DNA from: Sporopachydermia quercuum
Lineage: Eukaryota; Ascomycota; Sporopachydermiomycetes; Sporopachydermiales; Sporopachydermiaceae
Length of the DNA stretch: 64,000 nt
Assembly (NCBI GenBank): GCA_001599295.1
Contig: BCGN01000005.1
Location: forward strand, 806,001-870,000
Direction: 5' to 3'
Below the pieces are notes generated by a model that saw only the letters and a program-made list of their open reading frames with translations, was not told where the DNA came from and did no database searches. Positions within the stretch are counted from its first letter, which is position 1. Each line of letters begins with the position of its first letter. Shown one piece after another: positions 44,930-64,000 of the stretch. Both the position numbers and the translations under genes were made by a program.

Positions 44930-46495
44930 ATGAAACCTTCTTTAAGACTGTCCCAGACATTGGTATCTTTGAAGAACTCGGTGTTATCTACTTTAACACC
45001 AGCTTCCTCGGTACCTCAGAAAATTTTCCCAGAACCTCAGACGTTAACAATTGATTCTAAGGAGTGCTGGGCAGTAATAGGAACCCACAAAACAAAATTA
45101 CTAGAAGTCTTGGCATCTCAGCATTTGGTTTCACCTCCTTTATCAAGAAAATATCCATTCCTAGCTGCATCCAATGCCTGGCCGAGCTCTGCTATCTCCT
45201 ACCTGGAATTTAGGAACAAGAATACTCCAAAAGTTCATTTATCTGCTAGATTTGAATATTTCAAAGTCGTTGAAGATAAAACACTGAGAGAATTCATGCT
45301 TGGATCTCAGATCAATACTACGGCTGGTTTAGAAGTAGACGAAAAGCTGCTGCGGGAGGTTTTGCAGAAATTACAATTGAATGGAATGGAAGATCGACTG
45401 GTTTTGGGTTTTAGTAACGGACAGACCAGAAGAGCTCGTATGGCGAAAGCCTTAATTGCTGAGCCTAAGATTCTCATTATTGATGAACCATTCCTTGGTT
45501 TAGACCCAAAGGCCAAAAAAGTTGTTTCCGAAGCACTAGGTAGTCTGCCTCCTAATCCGTATTTGATAGTAGGTTTAAGGTATCAAGATCCCTTACCTGA
45601 GTGGATTTCTCATGTGGCTGTGGTGGGAAAGAATGGTATTATAGTACTTGGGGAAAAAAATGCAGTAGAGGAACATGTTACTGAATATAAATCAAAAGAT
45701 GAGGAGTTAGTTTTTTTGAATGAAAAACTTGCTAGTGAAGAGAGAAAACTGAAGAAATCCAAGAGGGTGATAAATAGCGAAGAAAGGAAAGAGAAGCTGA
45801 AAAATGCAAGACCGGCAATTGAGTTCAACAACGCGGAAGTATCGTACAACGGTCAAGAAGTTTTTAAGCCATTGTCTTTCACAATAAGAGAAGGTGAAAG
45901 ATGGCATATTCGTGGTGATAATGGTACTGGAAAATCAACGCTACTGTCGTTAATAACTGCGGATCATCCTCAAGCTTGGAAAGGTAAAACTGCTTTATTT
46001 GGAGCCCCATATAAGATTGGAAAAGCAAATTATTTCGATATCAATGCTCAGATTGGATTCGCAGCTCCAGAAATTCATGCTGTGTTTCCAATGGACAAAA
46101 TGACTGTTTTCGATGCATTGAACACAGGTTTTAGAGTAGGAAGTTTTGTTCCTTATGCTCGAAAAGATTTGAAAGATGAACAAGTGAATGCGATTGAGGA
46201 ATTAATTGAAGAATTTGGTCTAAATGGAGATGATATAGTGTCTGATTTATCAATATCAGATCAAAAAACTGTACTGTTTGNTAGAGCCCTTGTGAAGAAG
46301 CCTAAAGTGGTTTTACTTGATGAAGCATTCTCTACTATGGAAGAAGCAAGAATTGAACAGTGTAAGGATATAATTAATAATTATGATGGAACTGTTCTAT
46401 TCATTGCTCATGAAGAGTCAGAAATTGGTCACTGTGATAAATATATTAGATTATACCCTGACGGAACCTCTGAGATAGGAGAAGTGAGTAACTAA
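44930..46495 (+). CDS. Soluble twin-ABC ATPase, YDR061W-like
   Basis: 521 residues, two ABC nucleotide-binding domains and no membrane spans. The second domain is standard at the start: IRGDNGTGKSTLLSLITADHPQ (K335). Its signature is LSISDQKTVLF and its Walker B is VVLLDEAFSTME. In the first domain the signature LGFSNGQTRRARMAKAL and Walker B ILIIDEPFLGLDP (D185, E186) are good, but the P-loop reads GTHKTKLLEVL without the usual GxGK pattern. A charged linker separates the domains near 245-285. Strings such as DHPQAWKG match the YDR061W/ModF-like group, whose yeast member is a mitochondria-associated protein of unknown role. It sits directly before LCB2, exactly as YDR061W precedes YDR062W in S. 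cerevisiae. The CTG in GKSTLL falls on a conserved Leu. Confidence 0.9.
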   Translation: MKPSLRLSQTLVSLKNSVLSTLTPASSVPQKIFPEPQTLTIDSKECWAVIGTHKTKLLEVLASQHLVSPPLSRKYPFLAASNAWPSSAISYLEFRNKNTPKVHLSARFEYFKVVEDKTLREFMLGSQINTTAGLEVDEKLLREVLQKLQLNGMEDRLVLGFSNGQTRRARMAKALIAEPKILIIDEPFLGLDPKAKKVVSEALGSLPPNPYLIVGLRYQDPLPEWISHVAVVGKNGIIVLGEKNAVEEHVTEYKSKDEELVFLNEKLASEERKLKKSKRVINSEERKEKLKNARPAIEFNNAEVSYNGQEVFKPLSFTIREGERWHIRGDNGTGKSTLLSLITADHPQAWKGKTALFGAPYKIGKANYFDINAQIGFAAPEIHAVFPMDKMTVFDALNTGFRVGSFVPYARKDLKDEQVNAIEELIEEFGLNGDDIVSDLSISDQKTVLFXRALVKKPKVVLLDEAFSTMEEARIEQCKDIINNYDGTVLFIAHEESEIGHCDKYIRLYPDGTSEIGEVSN

Positions 46496-46947
46496 GAGAA
46501 GCATTGATTGCAGAGCTCGAATTAACGTTTCTATTCTACAATGTTGATGAATACATGTAAACAGAAACCTCAAAAGGACGGATAAAAGTAAATAGTAACG
46601 CATAAAAGAAGGATAATAAATAATAATGATATATGTATATGAATGAATCAACCTCGATATAAATGAAGAATGTATTTCTGATTAAGTAATCCTTCTTTTT
46701 TACTTTGAAACCGGGCCACATTATAGGAACAAAATATTGTCCCGTGACATGAGAATGAAAGGTGGGAAACATGCATTCTTTTCCGAACATACTTAGCCTG
46801 ATATACATAATATACAGACATATTATTCCATTATACTTAAGTTAACTATTTGCAAGTCAAGAAAACATTCATATATATATGTAGCTTGCTACTTGTCTAA
46901 TTTTTATTTTATGTTGAACAAGTAGTATAGATTTACTTTACTCATCT

Positions 46948-46967
46948 TTTGGGACTTTTGTCCCAAA
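46948..46967. other. Perfect 8-bp hairpin, TTTT loop
   Basis: TTTGGGAC, loop TTTT, GTCCCAAA. A third GTCCC follows at once. It lies 450 bases after the ABC ATPase stop, so it is not an obvious terminator. Confidence 0.6.
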
Positions 46968-47268
46968 GTCCCACTTGGCTACCAAACAAGGCAATGTCCT
47001 CAAATTTAAACTTTGCCGTATCATGCGAGATGTACCTTATAATGGGGAGTCTACCGAAGCAAGAGACAAATTGTATCAAAATATTTCCTACAATTTCCAT
47101 TATATTAATCCAAATTGTTACATAATATCTCTGAATTATCTCAACTAGTGCCTCGGAGAGTATCAAATGAGTCAACCCTCTTTAGAATCAATAGAACAAT
47201 CTCAAAATTCATGTCTCTAGTCTTACCCCTAAACGCATTTACATGCATACCTTGCATATATTCGAAAG

Positions 47269-47315
47269 CGCGATTGATTTTTCATCTCCCAATAGAGATG
47301 ACTTACAAAATCGCG
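47269..47315. other. Nested inverted repeats
   Basis: Outer arms CGCGATT (47269-47275) and AATCGCG (47309-47315) enclose inner arms CATCTC (47283-47288) and GAGATG (47295-47300). Together they can form one interrupted stem-loop. Purpose unknown. Confidence 0.5.
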
Positions 47316-47848
47316 ATTAAGTGCCCGAGGAAACTTGGACATCAACTCTTTGTTTATTTCGGTAGTTCATTAATAAGTCAGATCAACTAAACACTTAAGA
47401 GCTGATCGAACAAAGCATCAACCGACTGTGGGGTATCAAATGCTTAAGTGTCTTAGTCTTATGCGGTAATTGTTTTTCAATAGAATCTTTGAAAAAATAA
47501 CACTGAGGTAGGTGTTTCGTGGAAAGATATAGATTGTCCACCTTGACGCGGAATTAGCGGAACGGGTAGACAGATACTAAATACCTGGGAAAAAAGAAAC
47601 AAAGAAGTCTGATAATTTCTATTTATTCAAAGATTTTTTATTTGAAGAAGGTAAATCGTTTTTTTATTGTTAATTGATCGTTATTGAGTATTTGCTCTAC
47701 AACTCAATACAGTTGATACAATCCGCAGAGCATTAACATAGTTAGTCGACTTACTATCAGTTGATCCATCAATTAGCAGATCATTTCACAAATAAGATAA
47801 TACCATTAGTGAGAATCAATATTACATCATAGCAAATTATTAAACAAA

Positions 47849-49615
47849 ATGGCACCGAGAACAAGATCTAAAGGTAAGAAGATTACTGTAGATCTTGTTG
47901 ATCCTGTTGAAGTATCCACTGAAACCTCAAATGGCGAAGTGCACGAAAAATCAGCTCCTATTGAAGGGAAGAAACATCATACATTGGGAAACAGTGGGCC
48001 AGAAGTCCTGGATAATGAATATGGACCATTAACTTCAGAGAAATATTTGGCAGTGTCAAGAATTCGACCAGGACAATTAGCATCAGCTGATGAATTGATT
48101 GAACCACCTTATCATATATTCATTACAACTTTCTTATCATATTTAGTTCTGATTATTTTCGGGCATGTAGAAGATTTCTTGGAAAAGTTATTTAAATCTG
48201 ATGAGTTTAAAGAATGCATGATAGTTGATGGATTTGCTCCTTGGTATTCCGATTTTGAATCATTTTACTTCCGAAGAATGAAGAAAAGATTAGATGATTG
48301 TTTCCGAAGACCAACAGTTGGAGTGCCTGGAAGATTTATTAATGTTTTAGACCGCAAACCATTAGATTTTTTCACACACTATGAGTATACGGGTACATCA
48401 ACTGCTTGTTTGAATCTTTCTGCTTATAATTATCTTGGTTTTGCTCAATCTGCTGGTAGTTGCACTGATGCAGCTGAAAAAGCTGTTTACTCCTATGGTA
48501 CAACATGTGGTGGTCCTCGTAATAAATCAGGTACTACAGATTTGCATTTGAAAACCGAACAAGTTATTGCTGATTTCGTTGGTAAAGAAGCTGCTTTAGT
48601 GTTTTCTATGGGTTATGGAACTAATGCTAATCTATTCGCTTCCCTTGTCGATAATAAATGTCTCGTCATCTCAGATGAATTGAATCATGGTTCTATTAGA
48701 ATTGGCGTTAGATTATCAGGCGCTGTCATCAAAGTATTCAAGCACAATGACATGGAGGATCTAGAGAAGGTTTTAAGAGAACAGATCTCGCAGGGCCAAC
48801 CAAAAACCCATAGACCTTGGAAAAAAATTTGGGTTTTATGTGAAGGATTATATTCTATGGAAGGTACATGTGCAAATCTACCTGCTTTGATTGAATTGAA
48901 GAAGAAATATAAATGTTACTTATTTGTTGATGAAGCACATTCTATTGGAGCTATGGGACCAACTGGTAGAGGTATCTGTGAATATTTTGGTGTTGACACT
49001 AACGATGTAGATATTCTTATGGGTACATTAACTAAGTCTTTTGGAGCAACCGGAGGTTATGTTGCAGCTTCCAACGATATTATTGATAGACTACGTATTG
49101 ATATTTCTACCAATAATTATGCAGAATCTATGTCACCACCAGTGCTAAGCCAAATCATTACTTCATTGAAGATCATCAGTGGTGAGCTAAATGGTGATGA
49201 AGGTAAAGAGCGTTTGCAACGTTTAGCATTCAATTCAAGATACCTAAGATTGGGGTTGAAACGATTGGGTTTCATTGTTTATGGTAATGATGATTCACCG
49301 GTTATTCCTTTGTTATTATACAATCCTGGTAAGATGCCAGCATTTTCTCGGATGATGCTTGCTGAGAAGATTGCCGTCGTAGTTGTTGGTTATCCTGCAA
49401 CACCACTGACTTCTAACAGAGTAAGACTATGTATGAGTTCTGCTGTGACTAAGGAAGATCTTGATCGTTTCTTGAGAGTATGTGATAAGGTTGGCGATGA
49501 AGTTATACTAAAATATAGTAATGACCCTGGAGCTTATGGTGAAAAGACACACTGGAATGTTGAGGAAGTTATTGCTAGGGGTGTTGAAGATGTTCAAAGA
49601 CCTATTTTGTATTAA
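47849..49615 (+). CDS. LCB2: Serine palmitoyltransferase subunit 2
   Basis: 588 residues, single exon. A membrane span lies near 90-110 (FITTFLSYLVLIIFGHVEDFL region). The alpha-oxoamine synthase fold follows: SAYNYLGFA, SYGTTCGGPRNKSGTTDLHL, DEAHSIGAMGPTGRGICEYF and the PLP-lysine motif GTLTKSFGATGGY with Lys396. The C-terminal YPATPLTSNRVRLCMSS is also conserved. The L of that motif (residue 520) is encoded CTG. Lcb2 pairs with Lcb1 in the ER and condenses serine with palmitoyl-CoA, the first step of sphingolipid synthesis; Lcb2 supplies the catalytic lysine. The basic N-terminus (PRTRSKGKK) is poorly conserved. Position next to the YDR061W-like gene matches S. cerevisiae. Confidence 0.98.
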   Translation: MAPRTRSKGKKITVDLVDPVEVSTETSNGEVHEKSAPIEGKKHHTLGNSGPEVLDNEYGPLTSEKYLAVSRIRPGQLASADELIEPPYHIFITTFLSYLVLIIFGHVEDFLEKLFKSDEFKECMIVDGFAPWYSDFESFYFRRMKKRLDDCFRRPTVGVPGRFINVLDRKPLDFFTHYEYTGTSTACLNLSAYNYLGFAQSAGSCTDAAEKAVYSYGTTCGGPRNKSGTTDLHLKTEQVIADFVGKEAALVFSMGYGTNANLFASLVDNKCLVISDELNHGSIRIGVRLSGAVIKVFKHNDMEDLEKVLREQISQGQPKTHRPWKKIWVLCEGLYSMEGTCANLPALIELKKKYKCYLFVDEAHSIGAMGPTGRGICEYFGVDTNDVDILMGTLTKSFGATGGYVAASNDIIDRLRIDISTNNYAESMSPPVLSQIITSLKIISGELNGDEGKERLQRLAFNSRYLRLGLKRLGFIVYGNDDSPVIPLLLYNPGKMPAFSRMMLAEKIAVVVVGYPATPLTSNRVRLCMSSAVTKEDLDRFLRVCDKVGDEVILKYSNDPGAYGEKTHWNVEEVIARGVEDVQRPILY

Positions 49616-50539
49616 ATAAATAGATCTGTTTGGTCTCAGAGATAATTAGGGTTGAGCATGAATGAAGAATGAGAATATGACAATTATGGGAGTTGGAGTA
49701 GTAATAGTAATGGAGATGATGTACAATTGACTTAAAGTCTAACTATTTGTTATTTTTGTATAGTTAGACGGTACTTTATATACGATTTTGCTTTTAAGCA
49801 CTTAATAATACCAATAATAATAATTTTTCATCAACGAAATGTTGTAAATAGTTGATAAGAAATATCGGATATCATGTTCTCATAGGTTCCCCAAATATCA
49901 GATATTATCCGATCCCTTTCTGTACCATACATTCATTCTTCATATTTCCCTAATTCAACTAATAAACAAAATCCTAATTTTATTCACCTCCACACTTACG
50001 TTCTCGACCATTTCAACTATTTTAATACTTCTGTAACCCTTCCACGTATCCGTTTTCCCTTTGTATGATCAATCTTCACTTCTTTCCCTTTGAAATATCT
50101 CCCAAATCACCCTTCCTTCTTTTCTCGATCATCTTCTCCGATTTCTGCAGCCCATCTTCTCCCTATCTTAATGACATCATCTCCAGTACTACCCCCTTGT
50201 TTCCTTTGAGCATGATCAAAGTCAAGAATCACATCACAAAGGAAATGACAGCAGGATTGCTGCTTATCAATTAGCGCTCCTCTTATTGTCTTATTTTACT
50301 TCTGTTGCAGTTGCTATGCCTATATGTAACTGCTAGTAGAAGAAAATGAATTGCAATAGTTAGCTCATAGAAACACGATATACTATACTCTAGTTTACAA
50401 TAACTATTTAAATAATTAGCAGAGGTATCAAGTACCATTATTCTGTCTTAAAGTACAATTGACTCAAGTAACAAACACCCCAGCACAAGATCCTATCATT
50501 TTAACTTCCAATTCATAAATTTACACACATTAGTTTGAA
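49616..50539. other. Tandem intergenic region before DOS2
   Basis: About 920 bases. A strongly pyrimidine-rich block at 49980-50290 contains a 69-codon frame (50065-50274) of Ser/Phe/Pro that I regard as chance. No other element. Confidence 0.5.
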
Positions 50540-52003
50540 ATGGACTTCTCTGAACAGGTAATCCCAGAATCAACAAGCAATAGTCCTTTGAATTTTTCAA
50601 AGAAAACTGGGAAGACGAAAAAATCGGACACAAGTGAACAAGAGGTGTCTTCGTCTAATGAAGGCTCTTCTGAGGCTCAAACTGCGGAAGAGATAACGGA
50701 TAAACAAACAAATTCTGAAACAAATTCTGCCCAAGCCGATGAAGCCGAAGGGATTGATAAGCCCAAAGAATCAAACCCAAGTCTGATTTCGGAAGTTGAT
50801 GGGAAAACTGATGAAGCGTTAGAGAAATTAGAACAGGAAGTAGAAAGAGTATATACTGCTCTTGAGCAATCAACAAGTCAATGGGGTAATAAATTATCAT
50901 CAGCTTGGACCTCATTTTTGAAAACAAGTGAAGTGGTAATAAATGAGAATAAGAAAAAGTTGAACGAACTTGATTTTGATAAGAAGCTAAAAGATCTAGG
51001 GCTTGATAAAACAGTTGAAAACATTAAGAAGATTGATATATCTGATCGTATTAATGAATTGAAGCAAAATCTTGATACAACAATTAGTTTGGATGATGAT
51101 TCAAATCAAGAAATAGTTGATCTTGCTTCTGTTGCTCGTGAAAAGGAACAAGTGGTTGCAAATAAAGGCAANAAGATGTTTGATTTGTTAACAATTCAAG
51201 CGCAAGCTTATTTTGATGATTTGGACCAAGATTTGGAAGATCTGCAGAAAGGAACTGAAGGCTTAGTATCAAAACTAGGTGGTTTCTTGAAAGATGCTAT
51301 AACTATTGATTCAGAGAACTCAACAGATAATAATGATGCTGATTCAGATGTTAACAAATCAAATGATGTTCTATTCGATACAGAGACTCAAATACATACC
51401 TCCAGATTAGAAGCTCAGCTTCATACTCTTAACACATCACAAGATGTATACCTTACAGAAGCTCCAGACGATTCATTTACTGCGTTCGTTGAATCGTTCT
51501 CTGTGGATGATCATACAGATGATATCTCAACGTTGTTAGAGGCATATCCTGAGCTACGGAACACCATGTCAATATTGGTTCCCACTAAGATTGCATATAA
51601 TGATTTCTGGGCACGATATTTCTTTATGAAGAAGCAGATAGAAGAGCAAGATGAAAAGAGAAGGTCTTTGCTTCAAAAGGCTAAAGCTACTGGTGAGGAA
51701 GAAGATGATGACTTTCAATGGGATGATGAGGAGGAGGAAGAAGAGGACCAAGTTTCTAGTAGTGCTGATGTGAAAGGAAAAGGACTTGGTGATGCTCTTA
51801 GGACGAAGTCAGATGAAGGATCTGAAAAGTCCAATAGATCCTCAGGTGAAGTCACTTTGGATCTAGTATCTAACTCCAGTTCAACCCTGGAAGTGGTAGC
51901 ATCACCGAAACAGAAGCAATCTAGTGCTTTCGGTGGAATTGATGATAATGTGAACTCTTCTAAAGATAGAACTGATGATGATTCTGATGATGATTGGGAA
52001 TAG
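50540..52003 (+). CDS. DOS2: BSD-domain protein Dos2
   Basis: 487 residues, single exon. The N-terminal 100 residues are Ser/Glu/Asn-rich. A helical region follows (WGNKLSSAWTSFLKTSEVVINENKKKLNELDF, then AYFDDLDQDLEDLQKGTEGLVSKLG). The BSD domain is seen near 315-375, with AFVESFSVDDHTDDIS, LLEAYPELRNTMSILVP and the diagnostic YNDFWARYFFMKK. The acidic tail ends DDDSDDDWE, as in fungal BSD/Dos2 proteins. S. cerevisiae Dos2 (310 residues) is poorly understood and has been tied to ubiquitin homeostasis. It converges with the DOA4-like gene, as DOS2 (YDR068W) does with DOA4 (YDR069C). N at 51172 is a third position. Confidence 0.88.
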   Translation: MDFSEQVIPESTSNSPLNFSKKTGKTKKSDTSEQEVSSSNEGSSEAQTAEEITDKQTNSETNSAQADEAEGIDKPKESNPSLISEVDGKTDEALEKLEQEVERVYTALEQSTSQWGNKLSSAWTSFLKTSEVVINENKKKLNELDFDKKLKDLGLDKTVENIKKIDISDRINELKQNLDTTISLDDDSNQEIVDLASVAREKEQVVANKGXKMFDLLTIQAQAYFDDLDQDLEDLQKGTEGLVSKLGGFLKDAITIDSENSTDNNDADSDVNKSNDVLFDTETQIHTSRLEAQLHTLNTSQDVYLTEAPDDSFTAFVESFSVDDHTDDISTLLEAYPELRNTMSILVPTKIAYNDFWARYFFMKKQIEEQDEKRRSLLQKAKATGEEEDDDFQWDDEEEEEEDQVSSSADVKGKGLGDALRTKSDEGSEKSNRSSGEVTLDLVSNSSSTLEVVASPKQKQSSAFGGIDDNVNSSKDRTDDDSDDDWE

Positions 52004-52745: not shown

Positions 52746-55700
52746 CTAGACATTTGGCTCTCGAGCATAAAATAAAACATATGCATTGCCATTGCACACA
52801 TCCTCAGATGGCAAATTATAACTGATCTTCGTATCATCAAAATAGCACCAGTTCCTTTTCCCTTTTTTCACATATGCTGTATAATGTCCTCCTTTCAAAG
52901 TACCATAATGATTAGCAACAGCATACAATTTGTATCTAAATGGTGGTATTTGATCCCTCAATGGCATTCCTGCTAACTTTTGCTTATCGTCAGCAATATA
53001 TGGTGGCCAGAATTTAGTTAAGTCAAGTATAGTACTAACAGGATAACTAACAAACGTTTCCAGCTTTTGTAAGGAACCTGAAAAAGAGAATCCTTGATTT
53101 TGCTTAAATCTGTTTAGATGAATAATCAAGACGTTTGGTAAACGAGATATTCTTAGTGTTTTCAATGTCTTTTGTCTTCTTTTACATCTGCTACAATACC
53201 AACGATCATCACCATCGAGTATTTCCTGTCTTAGAAACTCTCGGAAACAGTCATCTAATGAAACAGTTCTACCATGACTTAAAGATATTGGCAAGGATAA
53301 ACATGAAAAGGCATTATAAGTAGTTGATGTGAATTTGCATTCCATACATTGTAAACGGCTTTGATATTGACCTTGACAAACAGTAACAATACTAGAAAAA
53401 TCTGTCTTGAGGTATCTTTCCCATTCGATAGTAGATGCTCTTCTAACAGACATTTGTTCTCTATGACGTTCTTGTTCTGGTGTTAGTTCTCCCATTCTTG
53501 GTTTACCACCGCATTGATTCAACTCTTCATGTAAACCATCTAACAGAAAAGTAAGAAACTCTTGACAATCTTGCTGATCAAACCCTACAAAGTCGTCTCT
53601 CAGTTTCCCACATACAAATTTGAAAGCAGCAGGTGATAAAATTGCTCCGTCATTATTTGCCATAGTTTTAACAACTTCTGCATACTTATTTGCTAGAATT
53701 CCTTTATATCCAAGTCTACTAGCCATGTTAATATGATTTTTATAGCTATCATCAATGAAAATACTGGTCAGTTGCACCGTTCCAGCAAGGCACTGTAGGA
53801 TGCAGTTCATATAGCAAGTATTGCCTAAATTTTTCAGCCCACAAGCAAATGTCTCTAATCTCGCAGATTGGAATGGGTTTTGTTTGAACTCTTGATAAGA
53901 GTTTGTCCCCATCATGGCATCTGAAGAAGCTCTTCTGACTGATTTAGCTGTTACAGCTACTGGTGGAGGAAACGGTGGAATCTTCGGTGGAATCTGCGGT
54001 GTAGATGGCTGGAACCCTGTATGAGATATCACGGTTGAGTCTTCTGAGCTCAATTTACCATTGGTCATACTATTACTAGTAGAATAGGAACCATTGGATT
54101 TGAAAGATATATGGGATCCTTGTTGTGGAGAGTATAATTGTTGTTGAGAGTAATGATTCATGTCGAACGGTGTTTCATAACTTCTATCTATTGGTGACAT
54201 TTCCCGTGATGGTGATAATTGACCTGATGATGTAGAGCCTCCTGTGGAGTATGATGAGGTCGTTGAGGATAAATAAAGCTTTTCTGTTCTTGAGATTGCT
54301 TCTGGTGGCTTACTAATACCAATAGCACCATTTTGGTAATTATTCAGTATAGGACTTGGTGAGAATCCAGTGCGAGTAGAAGAACTGAGAGTTTTCAGCG
54401 TTGAGCTTGTAGCGATAGAATTAGGACCTTTCAACTGCTTCCAGGTAATCAAACCTCCATCGAGAAAAACAGGGTTTCTTTTCAAAGGGTTAGCAAAACT
54501 GAGATCAGTTAATGATAGTACGAGGTTTTTCAAACCTGAGACGTTATCCAGACTAGACTCAAATTGGTATTTAGAAGCAGTATTTGATCCAACGCCTGAC
54601 ACTCCTGATTTTGATGCAAACCTGGATGNGAAATCGTAAAATACTACCAATTCAAACTCGTTCCTTTTGCTGAATAGTTCTTGTTCGTTTTTAGGCGATA
54701 CACACAATGTATCTCGTAAATGGCTGTCACTAGCATTTGGTCTTAAAGATATAGGTTCAATGCAAATAATATTCTCACAATTGATATGACCTTCATCAAA
54801 TAATCTTCTTGCTCTCACGTCTATCAGCAAAATAGATGATTGATATGTATTCAATAATTGGCTTAGTATTTCTGGTGTTATATGAGTCTCTGATGGTAAA
54901 TTGGGGAAAGGTGAACTAGAATTGCCGGCTCTCTTGATAGGATTTGATCCATTGTTGGTGCTCGACTGTGAAGTTGTCTGATTTCGTTGTGAAGGATACT
55001 TGTTATTAGTGAATGGCTGTGGAAGTACTGATTTATTTGGTATTTGTTGAGGATTAGCCATTTGGTTTAGTTTCAGCGGTAGAGACTTAGCGGTTTGATT
55101 TGGCTTTAGTTTGGCAAATCTTGCACTTAGATCATCCATCGTCACATCGGTATTAGACTTGGAGTTCGGTTTACCTGAATCTAATCTCGTCGGTTGATTT
55201 TCAGCTGCTTTTATTGACCTTTGGGCAAGCTCGTAGTTAGAATCAATAGTTTGTTTCAACTGTTCGATTCTATCTTCCTTCATTAGCTTTGTAGAAAGCT
55301 CTCTCAATGATTGAGAGTATTTCGAGTTTTTATTAGAAATCAATTCTTGGTAGGATGGAGATTCTGGTATGACTTCTGATACTANAGTCAAAGCAGCTAG
55401 GTAGCTTGAATAAGCGTTTTCCCAGCTTCTAGTGAGCATTAGATTATTGAATCGCGAATAGAACTCTTGAGCTTCTTGCAATAACAAAGGAATTGGTAAT
55501 TGTTTGTTTTTATAAGCTTTCGAAGCAAGATCAATCTCTGGTACTGATCTTGTTAAATGAGGCTTCAGTATTTTGTTGTTGTTACTGTTATTTGCGTTAC
55601 TAATAGTATCAACATCATTACTATGCAATGTACTAGCAGAGCCATTTAATCCTGAGCTCTTACTATCAGCACCAGCAGTAGTAGATTTGAAACTTGGTCT

Positions 55701-55766
55701 AATATCACCAGGAGTATGCATCGGGACACTCGGTAGAGCATTTAAATCAATAGGTGTTGGTGACAT
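52746..55766 (-). CDS. DOA4: Doa4/Ubp5-type ubiquitin-specific protease
   Basis: 1006 residues from ATG 55766. Residues 55-180 are an MIT/USP8-dimer-like helical region (EFYSRFNNLMLTRSWENAYSSYL). A rhodanese-like domain lies near 300-420 (ILLIDVRARRLFDEGHI). A Ser/Pro/Gln-rich linker follows. The USP domain begins near 644: GLKNLGNTCYMNCILQCL with catalytic Cys651, FDQQDCQEFLTFLLDGLHEEL, two CxxC zinc pairs, and YAVANHYGTLKGGHYTAYV with catalytic His961, then WCYFDDTKI. This is the Doa4/Ubp5 architecture. Doa4 recycles ubiquitin from cargo at ESCRT-III on endosomes. The gene is related equally to DOA4 and its S. cerevisiae duplicate UBP5; I use DOA4 because DOS2 is its convergent neighbour. 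Ns at 54629 and 55385. Confidence 0.93.
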   Translation of the reverse strand: MSPTPIDLNALPSVPMHTPGDIRPSFKSTTAGADSKSSGLNGSASTLHSNDVDTISNANNSNNNKILKPHLTRSVPEIDLASKAYKNKQLPIPLLLQEAQEFYSRFNNLMLTRSWENAYSSYLAALTXVSEVIPESPSYQELISNKNSKYSQSLRELSTKLMKEDRIEQLKQTIDSNYELAQRSIKAAENQPTRLDSGKPNSKSNTDVTMDDLSARFAKLKPNQTAKSLPLKLNQMANPQQIPNKSVLPQPFTNNKYPSQRNQTTSQSSTNNGSNPIKRAGNSSSPFPNLPSETHITPEILSQLLNTYQSSILLIDVRARRLFDEGHINCENIICIEPISLRPNASDSHLRDTLCVSPKNEQELFSKRNEFELVVFYDFXSRFASKSGVSGVGSNTASKYQFESSLDNVSGLKNLVLSLTDLSFANPLKRNPVFLDGGLITWKQLKGPNSIATSSTLKTLSSSTRTGFSPSPILNNYQNGAIGISKPPEAISRTEKLYLSSTTSSYSTGGSTSSGQLSPSREMSPIDRSYETPFDMNHYSQQQLYSPQQGSHISFKSNGSYSTSNSMTNGKLSSEDSTVISHTGFQPSTPQIPPKIPPFPPPVAVTAKSVRRASSDAMMGTNSYQEFKQNPFQSARLETFACGLKNLGNTCYMNCILQCLAGTVQLTSIFIDDSYKNHINMASRLGYKGILANKYAEVVKTMANNDGAILSPAAFKFVCGKLRDDFVGFDQQDCQEFLTFLLDGLHEELNQCGGKPRMGELTPEQERHREQMSVRRASTIEWERYLKTDFSSIVTVCQGQYQSRLQCMECKFTSTTYNAFSCLSLPISLSHGRTVSLDDCFREFLRQEILDGDDRWYCSRCKRRQKTLKTLRISRLPNVLIIHLNRFKQNQGFSFSGSLQKLETFVSYPVSTILDLTKFWPPYIADDKQKLAGMPLRDQIPPFRYKLYAVANHYGTLKGGHYTAYVKKGKRNWCYFDDTKISYNLPSEDVCNGNAYVLFYAREPNV

Positions 55767-56997: not shown

Positions 56998-57645
56998 ATG
57001 CCAACGAAAGCTCTGTCAGCATTAACTCCTCCATTGCATTTTGCAATGGTTCAACCACAAGCCTACAGAGGTTCATATCCAAGACCCATTAATTATAAAT
57101 ACTTAAAACGTCTATCTATAAGAACAATTGTTTCAATGGCTCCAGATCCTATAACTGCAGAGACTGATGCACATTTATTCAACTTTGCTGAAGAAAATGG
57201 TATTAAACTAGTACATATAGAAGCAGGTCCTGAAGGAGGTAAAGGTAAGAAAAGAGGTGTTAGTCTTACGTATGATGCTGTTACAGTTGTTTTGAATCTG
57301 ATATTGGATTCAACAACGAGTCCAATTTATATTCATTGTTTGAATGGATGTCAAGTTACATCGCTGACAGTTGCATGCTTGAGGAGGATATCCATGTGGT
57401 CATTAGTATCTATATTTTCAGAATTCATGTCATATTCTCCAGTTGTCAATGCTAGCGATCGAGCGTTTGTTGAACAGTTTCATGCGGAATTTGACTTGAA
57501 AGAGGATTCGCCTAGTTGGATTTATGCTGGTCTATCCACAACTGGTGCAGGAGTTATAGTCGATGGTAATAAAATCAAAGTGACTAGTATAGAATCAGCA
57601 GCAACAATGAAACTAGATCGGCAGGATGATGATGATTANATTTAA
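56998..57645 (+). CDS. OCA6: Oca6-like member of the Siw14/Oca phosphatase family
   Basis: 215 residues, single exon, ATG at 56998. The opening PPLHFAMVQPQAYRGSYPRPINYKYL and TIVSMAPDPIT are typical of the Oca/Siw14 group. The phosphatase-loop position reads IYIHCLNGCQVTSLTVACLRR: the Cys is present but the Arg of HCx5R is Val. That suggests a non-catalytic or altered member, as thought for several Oca proteins in the Oca1-6 complex. SIFSEFMSY and the acidic C-terminus follow. S. cerevisiae Oca6 is YDR067C, one gene from DOS2 and two from DOA4; here it is divergent from the DOA4-like gene. N at 57639 in the last codons. Identity as Oca6 rather than another Oca paralog leans on this synteny. 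Confidence 0.82.
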   Translation: MPTKALSALTPPLHFAMVQPQAYRGSYPRPINYKYLKRLSIRTIVSMAPDPITAETDAHLFNFAEENGIKLVHIEAGPEGGKGKKRGVSLTYDAVTVVLNLILDSTTSPIYIHCLNGCQVTSLTVACLRRISMWSLVSIFSEFMSYSPVVNASDRAFVEQFHAEFDLKEDSPSWIYAGLSTTGAGVIVDGNKIKVTSIESAATMKLDRQDDDDXI

Positions 57646-57851
57646 TGTAGTGGAAGAAATTTATGAACTGAGAAGATTAGAAAGCGTTACTGATTGGCAG
57701 TAATAATGATAAAAGAGAATAGTACTATTCTTTTATTGCAAAAACTGTTGACAACACTTTTTATGCTCTATCCACGTTTATATACTTGTACGCATAATCA
57801 GAATGTATTGATAAACGAATGTTCACACTATTCAAAACACAGGTATGCAAA

Positions 57852-59144
57852 CTATTGGAATAATAAACTAGCTGCATAATCGACATTACCATTAGTTTGT
57901 TCTAAAGCTCTTATTGCTTGTTCGCGGCCAAAACCCAATGCCACCAATTGAGAAATCTCTGCTTCGGAAAACGGTTTAGCAGCTCTAGCAGATGCTGCTG
58001 ATGCTGCTGCTGAGGCTGCTGAGGATGCGGGAACATCCGTTGTTTTACCAACAGACGAATCATCAGATTTGCTACCTAATCTATGGGTTCTGCCGTCCCT
58101 AACCTTTTGGCTACCAAATGCGTTAGGAACATCTTTACTGTGTAAAAATGGAGTCTCAGTATCGCCGAATACTAAAACATTTCTTTGTAAATCGATGATA
58201 CCCTGGTGACGCTTCAGCATATCAAGGCCTAGCAATAGATCAGGAGCATTAGTATTGCTGTTATCTAACACAACGAAAGAACAAGGGAGAAATGAGTCAC
58301 CAATTTTTATTGGAGCAGAATGTACTCTACCGATTATCTTTCCAGACCCCACCCCTTGAGCGATACCTTGATATCTGGTATCTAATAATCTTTTAAGGCC
58401 ACATTGTTCTAATAAATAAGGTGACATAATTGTCATTTGAGCACCAGAATCAACAAAAGCCTTTGCATCATATCCATTAACTTTAACATCTATGTATAGC
58501 ATATCAACTTGAGTAAAAGCTTCTGGTGTATGTTCCAATGCTTGTTGTAAATTCTCGGCGATTTGATTCTCTTGAATCAATTCGTAAATTCTTCGCTGAG
58601 ATTCTTCGCTAAAAGGATCTTCATTCAACCTTGCTAGCTCTTGTTGACGTCTCATTTGCGCAGCACCAGCTTCCATCTGAATTTGAATCATTTTTTGTCT
58701 AAATTGTTCAGGATTTGATACTATGGCATCAGTTAGTCCATGTGATTCGTATTGAGATATGAATTGTTCTTTCAATGCAGAATTTGATAGCAGTTGATTT
58801 CTTAATGCTTCAATCTGTTGTTGGGCTTGTTGCAACATTTGTACAGAGTTTCCATTGGGCCCTTGTGTTATTGCTGTAGATGATGACAATGACGAACCTG
58901 CGGAAGGAGTACTTTCGCTCTTCGATGTAACAATCAATACATCATCTTCTTCAAGATTCAATGCAGAGATACTATTATCATTTCCAATGTTTAAAATATT
59001 TGATCCTGATTGTATAATTTGTAAATCGGCTTGAATTCCTGATTCAATCTCAATGTAGGCTTTCAGATCTTCAAACGTCATTTCTGGTGATACCTCTATT
59101 GGAATGATTGAATCATTCAATGGAACAGATAAGGTGAGTCTCAT
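57852..59144 (-). CDS. DDI1: Ddi1 shuttle-type aspartic protease (UBL-HDD-RVP-UBA)
   Basis: 430 residues. The start is the ATG at 59144 (MRLTLSVPLND); the open frame reaches 59213 but begins there with TTG. Domains in order: ubiquitin-like, residues 1-75; helical HDD region near 100-200; retropepsin-like protease with DSGAQMTIMS (catalytic Asp232), and LLLGLDMLKRHQGIIDL near 310; UBA at the C-terminus (ISQLVALGFGREQAIRALEQ, ending LLFQ). This is the full Ddi1 layout. By family knowledge it is a host aspartic protease that cuts heavily ubiquitylated proteins and helps the proteasome. An Ala-rich stretch precedes the UBA. In S. cerevisiae DDI1 lies beside UBP5, the duplicate of DOA4, and two genes from LSM5; here it lies between the DOA4-like gene and LSM5. 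Confidence 0.97.
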   Translation of the reverse strand: MRLTLSVPLNDSIIPIEVSPEMTFEDLKAYIEIESGIQADLQIIQSGSNILNIGNDNSISALNLEEDDVLIVTSKSESTPSAGSSLSSSTAITQGPNGNSVQMLQQAQQQIEALRNQLLSNSALKEQFISQYESHGLTDAIVSNPEQFRQKMIQIQMEAGAAQMRRQQELARLNEDPFSEESQRRIYELIQENQIAENLQQALEHTPEAFTQVDMLYIDVKVNGYDAKAFVDSGAQMTIMSPYLLEQCGLKRLLDTRYQGIAQGVGSGKIIGRVHSAPIKIGDSFLPCSFVVLDNSNTNAPDLLLGLDMLKRHQGIIDLQRNVLVFGDTETPFLHSKDVPNAFGSQKVRDGRTHRLGSKSDDSSVGKTTDVPASSAASAAASAASARAAKPFSEAEISQLVALGFGREQAIRALEQTNGNVDYAASLLFQ

Positions 59145-59741
59145 TTTGGATGGTGAATCTGATACTGATGAAATGAAGTAAGATGAATCTCTTCGATTTT
59201 GATTATAATACAAGTTCAGGAAACAGTTGACTGAGAGAAAAATAAGAATTGTCTATATCTTTCCGAACTTTGATCGAAGGAAAAGAATAAAGTGGGAACA
59301 ATTAACTATTAAATAGCATTATGGCAATTGTTTATCAATGGCAAAAGAAGGAGCTTAGTAAATGTGGCAAGGAGAGGATTATGATACATGTGAATTGGAA
59401 CATTGTGCATGGCCTCGCAGAGTTACTGCAGGACTGATATATGAGAGGTTACTCGAGGAGAACACTTGAAGATAGAAAGGTGAGTCAGTCACAAAATGTA
59501 AAGAGCTTTAATTTAGAAGACACATTTAACGTATAGATGATATAGATTGTTGAAAGTTTAAGATTGTTCTTATATGTTACAGATTGTGTTATCTTGGTTA
59601 TGTAGGTTACTCATGTATGGTACATGCAATGATATGCAAATGATATCTCTACATGTATAAGTAGAGGTTCTTTGCAACTCTTGATCAAGTATAATGACAA
59701 AAGCTATTATTATTAGAATACAAGGGAAAGATTAAGTATGA
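59145..59741. other. Tandem intergenic region between LSM5 and DDI1
   Basis: About 600 AT-rich bases between two minus-strand genes, holding the LSM5 3' end and DDI1 promoter. No other element. Confidence 0.5.
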
Positions 59742-60326
59742 TTAGTTCGGTCGTTCACCTCCTGGAATAATCTGTTTTAACTGTTAGTATTTAATTCGTT
59801 CTTAGGAATTTCGAGATTCCAGTGTTTTTCTCTTCTTTTTTCTATCATCAAAGGTTACGTACCATTGCAATTTGATTTCCACTCAACAGAATCTTCTTCA
59901 ACTTCTTAGGCTCATGAAGGTTACCACTGTGATGCCATTAGTAATCCGAAACTGCAAACAAATGAAATCAGAAAACTGACTCAAATACTTACTACGAAAC
60001 AACATCTTCTAGAACCATGTCTATGTGGATTAGTTAGTGAGAATTTATGGGGTATGGAAGATAAAAGTGAGTGTGTGGTATATCCCTTTAAGTATCAATG
60101 TACTTACTAACGAAATTGTCAAATCCAGCTAGGGTGCCTGTAAATTCTAATGGGATTCAGTTAGTAAACAGCTCTTCCAATGGATTGTTAACATCACTCT
60201 CTCATATATCAACGTACCAGCATCGTCTGTCATCACAACAAACACTTTGGACCCAATACATTTGTCCACCAACTCCAAAGGAAGGATAGGTGACACTCCT
60301 TTTTCTGGTTGGGCGGCTTCTGACAT
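59742..60326 (-). CDS. LSM5: Lsm5, Sm-like subunit of Lsm1-7/Lsm2-8 rings, five exons
   Basis: Minus-strand exons, in reading order: 60326-60218, 60146-60108, 60020-59993, 59926-59863 and 59771-59742, giving 89 residues. Introns are 71, 87, 66 and 91 bases, with donors GTACGT, GTAAGT, GTAAGT and GTACGT and an ACTAAC or ACTAAT box before each AG. The product reads SPILPLELVDKCIGSKVFVV (Lsm5 opening), AEFTGTLAGFDNFVNMVLED (Sm1), KKILLSGNQIAM (Sm2) and ends IIPGGERPN. The first AG after the first branch box is used; the next AG would drop three residues from the Sm1 loop. All joins keep frame. Lsm5 serves in the cytoplasmic decapping ring and the nuclear U6 ring. No long open frame marks this gene, so a simple ORF search misses it. 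The 63-codon plus-strand frame at 60098-60289 is antisense. Confidence 0.93.
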
Positions 60327-60838
60327 TCTGGCTTATATCAGTCAAGTAATATGTTCACTGTACGTTTCAATGCTCATATTATGTTTCCTACCTATTATCC
60401 TTAAGTGTTCTATTAATTGAACTGCTAACCGCCATAGTAAAGTAATACACGAACTTCATACCAAATAAAAAGTTGCAAAGGACCATTTAATGTCTTCTAT
60501 GTAGCCCCCCATATAATTATCTCCTGACACCCCCTTTTAATGTTATTTTCATTTTTCTGATAACGTTATAATTTATATATCCCTCAACTGTTTCGTCATT
60601 TGGCTTTGTTCCTATTGTCTGTTGACAAAAGAAGAATTTGACAATACTGAATGCACGAGTGAAGAGAGATATTTCTGAACTATTGAAAGTCATTGTTGCA
60701 GAAAGTTGTGTCTGTATTTTGTATTATAAGCTGTGCATTTTAACTGATTGCATGTGTATGTGTTGAATGAACACTTACGCGTAGAAGTACTAAGAGAGAA
60801 GTGAAGGCAAGCAAGGTTGAGATAGTTATAGGTTCAAA
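60327..60838. other. Divergent promoter region of LSM5 and PAA1
   Basis: About 510 bases. A CCCCCC-containing stretch near 60506-60535 is unusual in this AT-rich sequence. No gene seen. Confidence 0.5.
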
Positions 60839-61520
60839 ATGGCTAATAAATTTGTTATCGATATCCCAGCGCATTCTTATATTAGACCTCTTTTGCTATC
60901 AGATGTTGACAAATGTGTTGAACTGGAAAGTCTAGGTTTCCCACCTGAAGAAAGATGTTCTAAAGAAAAGGTATGTAGAAGTTATATCAGTAGTAGTTTT
61001 GTTGTTTTTTTTGTTGAGGATGGAAGCATAACTAACTAGAATGTTTGAACAGTTTGCTTACAGATTGACAGTTTGTCCTGAATTATCAGCAGGAATATTC
61101 ATTCATGGAGAAGAGAAACTGATAGGACATATACTTGGAACAAAAATGAGATCAGATGTTGTTACTGATGAAGCAATGGAAATTCCTGAAGTAGATGAGG
61201 CCTATTCAGAATTATATCTACGAAAATCCAAAGACGATAAGAGAGGCCATTTTGATGATGGAGATGTCATCGGTATTCATTCATTAGTTATTCATCCTGA
61301 TTACAGACATAAGAAGTTGGGACATTTTTTACTAAAAGACTATATTCAAAGAATGATTTCTCTACGAGTTGCTACCAAGATTAGTATCCTTGCTCATCGT
61401 TCACTAATTCCATTTTATGCGCCATTGGGATTTGTTGAATTAGGAGAGAGTGACGTTCAATTTGGTGGTGGTAACTGGTTAAATTTATCAGTTGATTTAA
61501 CTCCTGATGAAGAAGATTAG
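60839..61520 (+). CDS. PAA1: GNAT-family polyamine/arylalkylamine N-acetyltransferase, two exons
   Basis: Exons 60839-60970 and 61053-61520 give 199 residues. The 82-base intron starts GTATGT and has AACTAAC before the AG. The split is between codons 44 and 45. The protein follows S. cerevisiae Paa1: YIRPLLLSDVDKCVELESLGFPPEERCS, FAYRLTVCPELSAGIFI, KLIGHILGTKM and the acetyl-CoA motif GIHSLVIHPDYRHKKLGHFLL, then LIPFYAPLGFVELGES. By family knowledge Paa1 acetylates polyamines and aromatic amines such as serotonin. It is YDR071C in yeast, two genes from DOA4, so its place here fits the block. Reading through the intron would stop soon after KEK, and only the spliced form keeps motif D. Confidence 0.95.
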
Positions 61521-63077
61521 TTTGTTTTTGAGAAAGTTGTTGAAATTGGTTTGTTGTATTCATATTTTGCACCACAAGCATTGGAAACACTTCAACTGGC
61601 AAAAATTTTCTCTTTGGTCGCTAACACATTATACGGTCTCACAATTTATCTACTTATCTAATAATATATTTATTTCTTTGCTTGTCTACTTCATTTATTT
61701 ACTTGTTAACGTGGGTTTCACAGCTCTTGGGTTTAAATTAATTGGGTGATGTATTGACTCTCCACGTATCAAACAACCAACAAGTCGTTTGTTAATGAGA
61801 TCATGCATTATTTCTCTCCTCAACTTCTTTGTATTCTATTTATTATATGCTCCATAAACGTTTGATTCATCAAATATATGTCCTTTCATTGCTTTTGTTC
61901 CTTTTTGTACCTCGCTCTCTTGTTTGTTTCCTCTCTATTGAGAACCAATAACAGCATCATTAAATTATCAAAGGTTTTGCTCCGCGTAACTCTAAACCTA
62001 ATATGGACATGTCCCTTTTTGGTAGATGTTGATATGGTCAATGATAATAAATAAAGGTACCTGCTATAGTGATTGAGCCATTCTATGACTTAAATTTTGG
62101 TAGGAGATTCCTGATACTCATATTGAATAGAGACAAATACTGATTGATATTCTGAGCTGACTTTCAATCGTTGTGACTTATTGTAAATAAATTGCAGTTG
62201 ATGTAGGTGGATGCAATTATAGAATGTCTGTTAAGCTGATGATTGCTTTTCCGGACAAATATTAATCCTAAGCACGTGATGTGATGGAAACCTGATCAAG
62301 GATACGATAAAGAAAAGAAACTATACAACACTCTGTGATCCTGATATTGGGGTTCTACCGTTTTTCCATTGAATTCTCTCTTTTCCCTTCTTTGTTTTTG
62401 CTTCTAGATTAACAAGACGAATAAATATACCCCATTCTTATGAAATGAAAGATAAATGAATCCCATATAGACACATTCCAGACAAAACGACGGACTATCG
62501 TTCAGCAATGTCAATTCCTACAGTTCTCGGAGCAAATCCCTGTTCTTTTTTCAATTTCCGTCAAATGTAATACCCTCTGTTTATCTACCAATATTCTCAA
62601 ATTTTACTAGTATATCAAGGTCCTAAACAACGTTCAGTCACCTTTATATCGCTGTTCTGAACGAAGGAATCTCTGCCAACATAGCGTATCATCTCATGCT
62701 TTTTCAAATTCTTCGACATGTGTTCACTTACCCGGATTTCGGTCTTGAATTTCAAATCCAATCTTTGCTACCTCTGTTTACAATGTTGTTTATCATGTCA
62801 CGATAACAATAATAATTACACCGGTAGAACCAACAAATCTTGGATATAGCAGTTAAGATCTCTATAAATCTTTGAAATAAACTATACGAAGTAGAAGAAG
62901 AAGAAGAGAGGGGAGATTGAAACGAATATTGAACAATTTTATGTAAGCGGTAAACACAAGTGATCAACGATTCTTTCTTGGAAGTGCTCACTCAGAACTG
63001 TAGTTTACAAGACTACAGGAGAACCCATCGTAAAGAGAATATTCAGAGATATAAAAAATTGCAGGTTGAATGACACG
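61521..63077. other. Tandem intergenic region before SNF11
   Basis: About 1.55 kb. CACGTG lies at 62273-62278. The stretch 61750-61990 is pyrimidine-rich. A GTAAGC-like donor near 62942 and TTGCAG acceptor near 63063 flank no branch box and are not used here as an intron. No other gene found. Confidence 0.5.
62273..62278. promoter_or_regulatory. CACGTG E-box upstream of SNF11
   Basis: Single CACGTG about 800 bases before the SNF11 start. Listed because three other intergenic regions also hold this word. Confidence 0.25.
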
Positions 63078-64000
63078 ATGATGCGTCAAAGATCTGAAGT
63101 TCCCATAGGCTTCAGCAACAATATGGGGAATCCTATGAATAATAACATGGGGAATAACATGGGGAGTAGTATGGGTAATGCGATAGGAAATATAAATAAT
63201 GCCATGAGCAACGGCATGGGTAATGTAATGGGAAACGTTATGGGAGCTCCAATGAATTCGATGGGAAATAACTTGGGGAATGCTATGAGTAACCCCATGG
63301 GCAACAATAGTATGGGTGTTAATATTGGAGGTCCTATGGCTAATAATAGTAGTGGGTTGATGAACAGTAGGAGGTCAAGCACTGAACCAGACCCAGCGCT
63401 GGAAATTGAATCACAACGAATAAGTTTAATCCTTGATATAAACGCTGAGCTTTTAAGAACAGCAATTCGTATTCAAGATGATAAGTCCTCTCAAAGGGAC
63501 AAACTGAAAGTTGAAATATATCAAGCTTGTCTTAGAAAACTGAATGCGAACATAGTATACCTATCTTCTTTGTCGGACCCACAGAAGAGATTTGTTCAAA
63601 ATCATTCATTAATAGCTCAAATGGTTGCTCCTATTCAACAACTAACGAAACTTGGTGATCATTTCAAAATGCTCCAGTCTTTATTTCCAGAATCTATGTT
63701 GTTATTACAAAGGAAAGCTATGTTGTTAAAACAGCAGCAACAACAGCAACAACAGCAGAACCAACAAATTCAGCTACCAACAGATTCTTCACAGCCTCCA
63801 CAGTCTCAGGTGCAGTTGCAGCTTCAAGCAAATCAACAGCAACGTCAAATTCCACAAACAAAGCAGCAACAATTGCAACAATTGCAACAATTACAGCAAT
63901 TACAACAACAGCAGCAGGCTAAACTACCGCCATCTCAGCAGCAACAACAACAGCCTACTCCAACACAAGCTCAGGCTTCCATGGCCGATGGTCGTAACGG
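63078..64000 (+). CDS. SNF11: Snf11/SSXT-type SWI/SNF subunit, 3'-truncated by the window edge
   Basis: The frame opens at ATG 63078 (MMRQRSEVPIGF) and is still open at base 64000, so at least 307 residues. Residues about 12-90 are Met/Gly/Asn repeats (NMGN-like). Residues about 107-165 carry the SSXT/SNH-like helices: ESQRISLILDINAELLRTAI and LRKLNANIVYLSSLSD, which parallels ANLVYLATIAD of human SS18. From about 215 the protein is a Gln-rich tract with Leu and Pro. In S. cerevisiae Snf11 (169 residues) binds the Snf2 ATPase in SWI/SNF. The position fits, as SNF11 (YDR073W) lies two genes beyond PAA1. The long Gln tail is absent from the yeast protein and recalls the Gln-rich tail of SS18. 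A 98-codon minus-strand frame here is antisense to the repeats. Confidence 0.82.
   Translation, partial: MMRQRSEVPIGFSNNMGNPMNNNMGNNMGSSMGNAIGNINNAMSNGMGNVMGNVMGAPMNSMGNNLGNAMSNPMGNNSMGVNIGGPMANNSSGLMNSRRSSTEPDPALEIESQRISLILDINAELLRTAIRIQDDKSSQRDKLKVEIYQACLRKLNANIVYLSSLSDPQKRFVQNHSLIAQMVAPIQQLTKLGDHFKMLQSLFPESMLLLQRKAMLLKQQQQQQQQQNQQIQLPTDSSQPPQSQVQLQLQANQQQRQIPQTKQQQLQQLQQLQQLQQQQQAKLPPSQQQQQQPTPTQAQASMADGRN
63111..63345. repeat. Degenerate ATGGGNAAT repeats in SNF11
   Basis: About fifteen imperfect copies of an ATGGGnAAT core separated by short Asn or Ser codons, coding Asn-Met-Gly-Asn strings. The phase is always a multiple of three, so expansion stays in frame. Confidence 0.75.

What the first reader, a model, noticed from the sequence alone, without database searches (positions are those of the whole stretch)
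44930..64000. Gene order joins the two whole-genome-duplication sister tracks of S. cerevisiae
Nine consecutive genes here (YDR061W-like, LCB2, DOS2, DOA4/UBP5-like, OCA6, DDI1, LSM5, PAA1, SNF11) match two yeast regions: chromosome IV YDR061W-YDR073W and chromosome V YER143W-YER146W. DOA4 and UBP5 are known duplicates, and DDI1 and LSM5 flank UBP5. One unduplicated order explains both, with reciprocal gene loss afterwards in Saccharomyces. Such retention is surprising if this lineage is as distant as its introns suggest.
Basis: partly seen in the sequence, partly recalled or inferred. Interest (0 to 1): 0.72.

Follow-up and report, generated by a model that had tools for sequence, protein, structure and literature searches.

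The report
Ancient gene neighbourhood in unnamed yeast
A run of neighbouring genes in this intron-bearing yeast combines genes that baker's yeast keeps on two different chromosomes, so it is most likely a surviving, partly shuffled copy of the gene neighbourhood that existed before baker's yeast doubled its genome.

Summary
The nine genes are there. Eight of nine have support from family or structure-sequence searches, several only at family level; SNF11 rests on resemblance alone and runs past the window end. The content is a union of the Saccharomyces chromosome IV and V sister tracks (positions recalled). Signed order is not conserved: OCA6, DDI1, LSM5 and PAA1 form a contiguous block flipped relative to both flanks, and the reversal count is no better than random under two of four assumed ancestral orders and borderline under the other two.

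The main new evidence lies outside the window. Missing members of the same track sit 16-38 kb to the right (GDI1, AIM7, RPS13, possible RRG1, single-copy RTR, EMP65, COX15) in an order matching both tracks. TPS2, SCC4 and SPT15, split between chromosomes IV and V in Saccharomyces, are neighbours on another contig. An unduplicated track, later broken up, is well supported.

The yeast reads CUG as leucine, has complex I, and groups with a Komagataella-like chain rather than Yarrowia in one gene tree. If so, the retention exceeds what a major review says survives between yeast subgroups. No pre-duplication yeast could be compared.

The parts
44930..46495 (+). YDR061W-like tandem ABC ATPase (521 aa)
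   Evidence: ABC_tran, two stretches, 2.1e-29; ORF
47849..49615 (+). LCB2, serine palmitoyltransferase subunit 2 (588 aa)
   Evidence: PF00155 1.1e-58; best PDB hit serine palmitoyltransferase 2, 739 bits
50540..52003 (+). DOS2-like BSD-domain protein (487 aa)
   Evidence: PF03909 4.2e-16; orthology inferred from domain and position
52746..55766 (-). DOA4/UBP5-like ubiquitin hydrolase (1006 aa); the gene that Saccharomyces keeps in duplicate
   Evidence: UCH 2.5e-64 and borderline USP8_dimer; best PDB hits USP15, then USP8; best of 17 UCH matches in the genome
56998..57645 (+). OCA6-like tyrosine-phosphatase-family protein; strand flipped relative to Saccharomyces (recalled)
   Evidence: PF03162 1.3e-39; five places with this family in the genome
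57852..59144 (-). DDI1 (ubiquitin-like, retroviral-type protease, UBA); strand flipped
   Evidence: PF09668 2.2e-43, UBA 1.9e-10, ubiquitin 2.1e-05 (below its cut-off)
59742..60326 (-). LSM5, five exons (60326-60218, 60146-60108, 60020-59993, 59926-59863, 59771-59742), 89 aa; strand flipped
   Evidence: Exons placed by eye, frame and GT..AG borders checked; product matches LSM 4.4e-17
61041..61520 (+). PAA1-like GNAT N-acetyltransferase (159 aa); strand flipped
   Evidence: GNAT 3.8e-09; PDB hits serotonin N-acetyltransferase 1.7e-08
63078..64000 (+). SNF11-like Q/N-rich protein; ORF continues to 64391 (C5:870391)
   Evidence: ORF; no relevant Pfam or PDB match; assignment by recalled resemblance only

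Best explanation
This is a vertically inherited piece of the gene neighbourhood that existed before the Saccharomyces whole-genome duplication. In the Saccharomyces lineage it was copied and each copy lost different genes, giving the IV and V tracks. This lineage never doubled it, so genes of both tracks stay side by side. Here the track was later cut into at least three pieces: the window block; a GDI1-to-COX15 block about 16 kb to the right, behind a run of chromosome XI genes; and a TPS2-SCC4-SPT15 block on another contig. Inside the window block four neighbouring genes appear inverted. Shown: gene content, single-copy RTR, interleaving at three places. Inferred: timing, reciprocal loss in Saccharomyces, and which rearrangements happened.
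For: Nine-gene content in the window, 8 of 9 tool-supported. GDI1, AIM7, RPS13, RTR (two exons), EMP65 and COX15 supported by Pfam at window +80.3 to +102.5 kb. TPS2, SCC4 and SPT15 within 8.7 kb on C6, strands matching recalled Saccharomyces strands after reversal of the segment. RTR is one locus in the genome; SCC4 has one strong locus and one sub-cut-off match. The right block is in the order of both recalled tracks, strands agreeing for 6 of 7 genes, the unconfirmed RRG1 counted. Chromosome IV members in the window: 2 of 21 pairs out of order, exact P 0.011 with SNF11, 2 of 15 and P 0.056 without it. No run of Ns in the 222 kb lies nearer than window -49 kb.
Against: Signed order inside the window is not clearly close to any of the four ancestral orders I assumed (5, 6, 3 and 3 reversals; 67%, 99.6%, 5.3% and 5.3% of signed orders are as close). 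FTR1 family members lie on C11 and C4 and the IPT1/AUR1 family on C4. SNF11 and RRG1 are not confirmed by any library. Non-track genes interrupt the right block. Saccharomyces gene positions are recalled. No pre-duplication yeast was compared.
Confidence: 0.9

Rival explanations
1. The same neighbourhood is retained, but the species is a fairly close relative of Saccharomyces (for example Phaffomycetales), so the retention is ordinary. This rival concerns the surprise, not the inheritance.
For: Synteny with the pre-duplication ancestor is documented around centromeres across Saccharomycetales, Saccharomycodales and Phaffomycetales, about 208 My (PMC12711049, passages). Other Saccharomyces-like runs exist nearby. 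CUG-Leu and complex I do not exclude it.
Against: RPB2 scores higher against a chain I take as Komagataella (1767 bits) than against Saccharomyces (1684), with the chain I take as Schizosaccharomyces only slightly lower (1655); scores are not a tree. LSM5 has four introns.
Confidence: 0.25
2. The genes stay together because selection keeps them as a functional or co-regulated cluster.
For: Members stay within short distances although local order is shuffled.
Against: Known functions of these families are unrelated (sphingolipid synthesis, ubiquitin removal, RNA decay, N-acetylation, protease; recalled). The track is in three pieces here and split in Saccharomyces.
Confidence: 0.06
3. The adjacency arose separately in this lineage.
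For: No pre-duplication genome could be checked; order and strand differ from the recalled tracks.
Against: Chance of nine consecutive genes from one 30-gene track is about 3e-21 per position under a naive null. Interleaving of the same two tracks at two further sites.
Confidence: 0.02
4. The blocks reflect an assembly artefact.
For: 47 single Ns in the window and one 64-base run of Ns at window -49 kb show an imperfect assembly.
Against: The window and both blocks on C5 lie in one 1.49 Mb contig with no run of Ns between them; an artefact would not be expected to rebuild known neighbourhoods.
Confidence: 0.02

Closest known systems
Reconstructed pre-duplication yeast ancestor (Yeast Gene Order Browser; Gordon et al. 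2009, PMC2675101, passages seen)
   Same: An unduplicated order whose genes are divided between two Saccharomyces sister tracks; here tracks IV (YDR061W-YDR074W) and V (YER136W-YER148W), positions recalled
   Different: That reconstruction uses 11 species, those named in the passages being Saccharomycetaceae. This genome appears to lie outside that family, has the track in three pieces and a reshuffled order. The reconstructed order of this segment was not available to me
Gene-order conservation between Phaffomycetales, Saccharomycodales and the pre-duplication ancestor (PMC12711049, passages seen)
   Same: Local gene neighbourhoods kept across yeast orders, with small inversions and arm exchanges
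   Different: That work concerns regions around centromeres; this segment was not tested for a centromere, and the species may belong to a more distant order
Dual synteny of Lachancea waltii and Eremothecium gossypii with Saccharomyces (reported in PMC5499181, passage seen)
   Same: Single neighbourhood mapping to two Saccharomyces regions
   Different: Those are pre-duplication relatives in the same family

Membership tests
Unduplicated counterpart of a Saccharomyces double-synteny block | Genes of both sister tracks lie together in one region | tested here: met
   Window block, right block, C6 block; Saccharomyces positions recalled
Unduplicated counterpart of a Saccharomyces double-synteny block | RTR1/RTR2 pair is single-copy | tested here: met
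   One locus, two exons, C5:902228-902659
Unduplicated counterpart of a Saccharomyces double-synteny block | DOA4/UBP5 pair is single-copy | tested here: inconclusive
   Best of 17 UCH matches; orthology against UBP7/UBP11 not resolved by a tree
Unduplicated counterpart of a Saccharomyces double-synteny block | Gene order and strand agree with the two tracks | tested here: inconclusive
   Right block and C6 largely agree; chromosome IV order in the window nearly colinear (P 0.011 with, 0.056 without SNF11); signed order of six inner genes not conserved and four strands flipped
Unduplicated counterpart of a Saccharomyces double-synteny block | The same adjacencies exist in known pre-duplication yeasts | not testable with these tools
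   No other yeast genome reached; a paper search for three of LSM5, UBP5, DDI1, synteny found 0
Sporopachydermiales (Sporopachydermia quercuum) | Genome size about 16.4 Mb in few scaffolds | tested here: met
   16,393,282 bp, 12 contigs against 16.4 Mb, 15 scaffolds in PMC5499181 Table 3; not specific
Sporopachydermiales (Sporopachydermia quercuum) | Phylogenetic position by many genes | not tested
   Only one four-taxon tree (NUAM), which excludes the Yarrowia side but cannot name the order
Saccharomycetaceae or Saccharomycodaceae | Loss of nuclear complex I genes (recalled character) | tested here: not met
   75 kDa subunit present at C2:1633031, 1076 bits to a fungal complex I chain
CUG-Ser or CUG-Ala yeasts | CTG codons read as serine or alanine | tested here: not met
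   Two of the 12 genes listed were examined (MTR4, LCB2): of their 10 CTG codons 7 align with leucine in the best PDB chain, 1 with glutamine in a poorly conserved stretch, 2 not visible (read by eye)

The most novel reading that the evidence does not exclude
A yeast of an order that split off well before Phaffomycetales (probably Sporopachydermiales) has kept large recognisable parts of the pre-duplication Saccharomyces gene map: 17 genes of one track, tool-supported at least at family level, in three blocks, plus a second double-track cluster 55 kb away. Gene-neighbourhood content would then survive much deeper in Saccharomycotina than the view that nearly all conserved synteny disappears between subgroups, and the ancestral map could be pushed back toward the root of the larger clade.
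Probability: 0.5. Interest if true: 0.55.

Novelty: new member of a known kind. Interest (0 to 1): 0.42.

Why it matters
Double synteny is how the Saccharomyces genome duplication was recognised, and the reconstructed ancestor rests on a limited set of fairly close species. A distant, unduplicated genome that still shows the interleaved tracks is an independent outgroup check. [quoted passage not shown]

Tried and rejected
Snf11 identity: Pfam at E up to 1 and PDB with the in-window ORF and with its conserved-looking segment gave nothing relevant (the two hits were chemoreceptor chains at E 0.57 and 0.9). RRG1 identity: no Pfam match.

Placement by RPB2: I wanted Schizosaccharomyces as outgroup, but the alignments printed were one Komagataella-like and two Saccharomyces chains (three asked) and one Komagataella-like and four Saccharomyces chains (five asked). 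No RPB2 tree was made. The NUAM tree uses rows printed. The tool does not print organisms of PDB chains: those named here are recalled or inferred from the molecule names (Saccharomyces RPB2 bears its ORF name).

Breakpoint signals: ARAGORN found no tRNA in the window or in 11 flanking loci, Rfam at gathering thresholds none in the window, so no tRNA was found to mark the breaks.

Literature: one paper held three of DOA4, UBP5, whole genome duplication, DDI1; its listing concerns fungal pathogenesis. None held three of LSM5, UBP5, DDI1, synteny. Wider synteny searches: (listings). Passages of PMC11105162 and PMC12322030 were also seen and not relied on.

Considered and dropped: a functional cluster (unrelated functions), and chance adjacency.

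Full report
What was checked. The window is C5:806001-870000 of a 16,393,282 bp genome in 12 contigs. I listed ORFs in the finding's span and in the window plus flanks, 222 kb in all, and searched the nine candidate genes against Pfam, and four of them (LCB2, DOA4, PAA1, and SNF11 twice) against the sequences of solved structures. Saccharomyces gene positions and strands used below are recalled; no call supplied them.

The nine genes. Eight of nine have tool support: a tandem ABC protein, LCB2, a BSD-domain protein (DOS2), a UCH protein with a borderline USP8_dimer domain (DOA4/UBP5), a Y_phosphatase2 protein (OCA6), DDI1, and a GNAT protein (PAA1) by Pfam, with LCB2 and the GNAT protein also by structure-sequence search. 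LSM5 is not one open frame: it is five short exons on the minus strand at 60326-59742, placed by eye and checked to give 89 residues across four GT..AG introns of 66-91 bases; the product matches the LSM family at 4.4e-17. The ninth, SNF11, has no relevant Pfam or PDB match; I keep the name only as a lead. Several names (OCA6, DOS2, PAA1, DOA4) are family-level plus position. In the gaps I saw no other ORF that I judged gene-like; the short gap ORFs were not searched.

Order and strand. The seven chromosome IV members appear in the order 61, 62, 68, 69, 67, 71, 73, with 2 of 21 pairs out of order (exact P 0.011); without the unconfirmed SNF11 it is 2 of 15 pairs and P 0.056. Strands agree with Saccharomyces for YDR061W, LCB2, DOS2, DOA4 and SNF11 and are flipped for OCA6, DDI1, LSM5 and PAA1. 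The four flipped genes are contiguous (57.0-61.5 kb), which suggests inversion of one block. I counted signed reversals from four assumed ancestral merged orders to the window order: 5, 6, 3 and 3. The fractions of all signed orders that are as close are 0.667, 0.996, 0.053 and 0.053. So local signed order carries little signal; content does. Under a naive random-order null, nine consecutive genes from a given 30-gene track among 5000 have a chance of about 3e-21 per position (both numbers are my inputs).

Outside the window. To the right come a WD40 protein (SWD2-like; WD40 families only), a helicase (HCS1-like), ATP7 and URB1, a recalled YKL018W-YKL014C run. Then, at 80.3-102.5 kb in window numbering, come GDI1, AIM7 (a cofilin-family match), RPS13, three ORFs that are not of the track (83980-84585 without a Pfam match; a permease-like and a dioxygenase-like ORF judged by eye), a possible RRG1 (no Pfam match), RTR in two exons, EMP65 and COX15. 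These include the members missing from the window: chromosome IV 63, 64, (65), 66 and chromosome V 136, 139, 140, 141, in that order, with strands agreeing for 6 of 7 (COX15 differs). RTR, duplicated in Saccharomyces as RTR1/RTR2, is one locus here. On contig C6, SPT15, SCC4 and TPS2 lie within 823.0-831.7 kb (a second, weaker trehalose-phosphatase match lies at C5:408 kb). Read on the reverse strand they are TPS2 +, SCC4 -, SPT15 +, the recalled Saccharomyces strands, although TPS2 is on chromosome IV and the other two on V. This interleaving does not depend on the DOA4 assignment. FTR1-family genes (C11, C4) and the IPT1/AUR1 family (C4) lie elsewhere. Counting only tool-supported genes, 8 in the window, 6 in the right block and 3 on C6 make 17.

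Is the segment special in this genome? Not unique. Left of the window, at -28.5 to -10 kb, lie GLC8, PRE5, ZUO1, ELP6, TGL3, YMR310C/YGR283C and a BGL2-like gene (by domain), a recalled mixture of chromosomes XIII and VII, that is, a second double-track cluster. SEC13-PNP1, NUF2-SDH5, IRC6/ERJ5 and ADK1-PCF11 are further Saccharomyces-like neighbours (by domain; SEC13 by WD40 and eye). By contrast I recognised no such run in window 1-44 kb, from the ORFs read by eye and nine of them scanned with Pfam (two, seven). A genome-wide count was not made.

What yeast is it? CTG is leucine: of 10 CTG codons in MTR4 and LCB2 (two of the 12 genes), 7 align with leucine, 1 with glutamine in a poorly conserved stretch, 2 were not visible (read by eye). 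Complex I is present. In a four-taxon tree of its 75 kDa subunit the query joins the chain I take as Komagataella; the two other topologies are rejected (AU 0.006 and 2e-5). RPB2 scores are 1767 (taken as Komagataella), 1684 (Saccharomyces) and 1655 (taken as Schizosaccharomyces). Sporopachydermia has its own family, order and class. Introns such as the four in LSM5 fit an earlier branch but do not prove it.

Meaning. The best reading is vertical inheritance of an unduplicated neighbourhood, with the split into two tracks occurring only in Saccharomyces. Synteny with that ancestor is documented out to Phaffomycetales around centromeres (PMC12711049, passages). A major review states that nearly all conserved synteny disappears between yeast subgroups (PMC5499181 section 31 read). 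If the species is Sporopachydermia-like, the 17 supported genes of one track are a clear exception in content, though not in signed order. The proposed decisive test, pre-duplication yeasts, could not be run.

Noticed in passing
C5:777549-795950 (window -28451 to -10050; L021, L009): A second double-track cluster: GLC8, PRE5, ZUO1, ELP6, TGL3, YMR310C/YGR283C and BGL2-like, a mixture of recalled Saccharomyces chromosomes XIII and VII.
   Followed up: partly
C6:823035-831718 (L037, L038): SPT15, SCC4 and TPS2 are neighbours although split between chromosomes IV and V in Saccharomyces (recalled); LUC7 lies next to them.
   Followed up: yes
59742-60326: LSM5 has four introns in an 89-residue protein, with TACTAAC-like branch sites in at least two of them (by eye), many for a budding yeast.
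   Followed up: partly
window 1-64000: 47 isolated single Ns about every 1.4 kb, as if ambiguous (heterozygous?) positions had been masked.
   Followed up: no
window 1-64000 and 11 flanking loci: No tRNA found by ARAGORN and no Rfam match at gathering thresholds in the window, which seems sparse for a yeast; intron-containing tRNAs may be missed.
   Followed up: no
L010:4443-4727 (window -5557 to -5273): L51/S25/CI-B8 domain ORF resembling complex I subunit NDUFA2, in line with complex I being present.
   Followed up: partly
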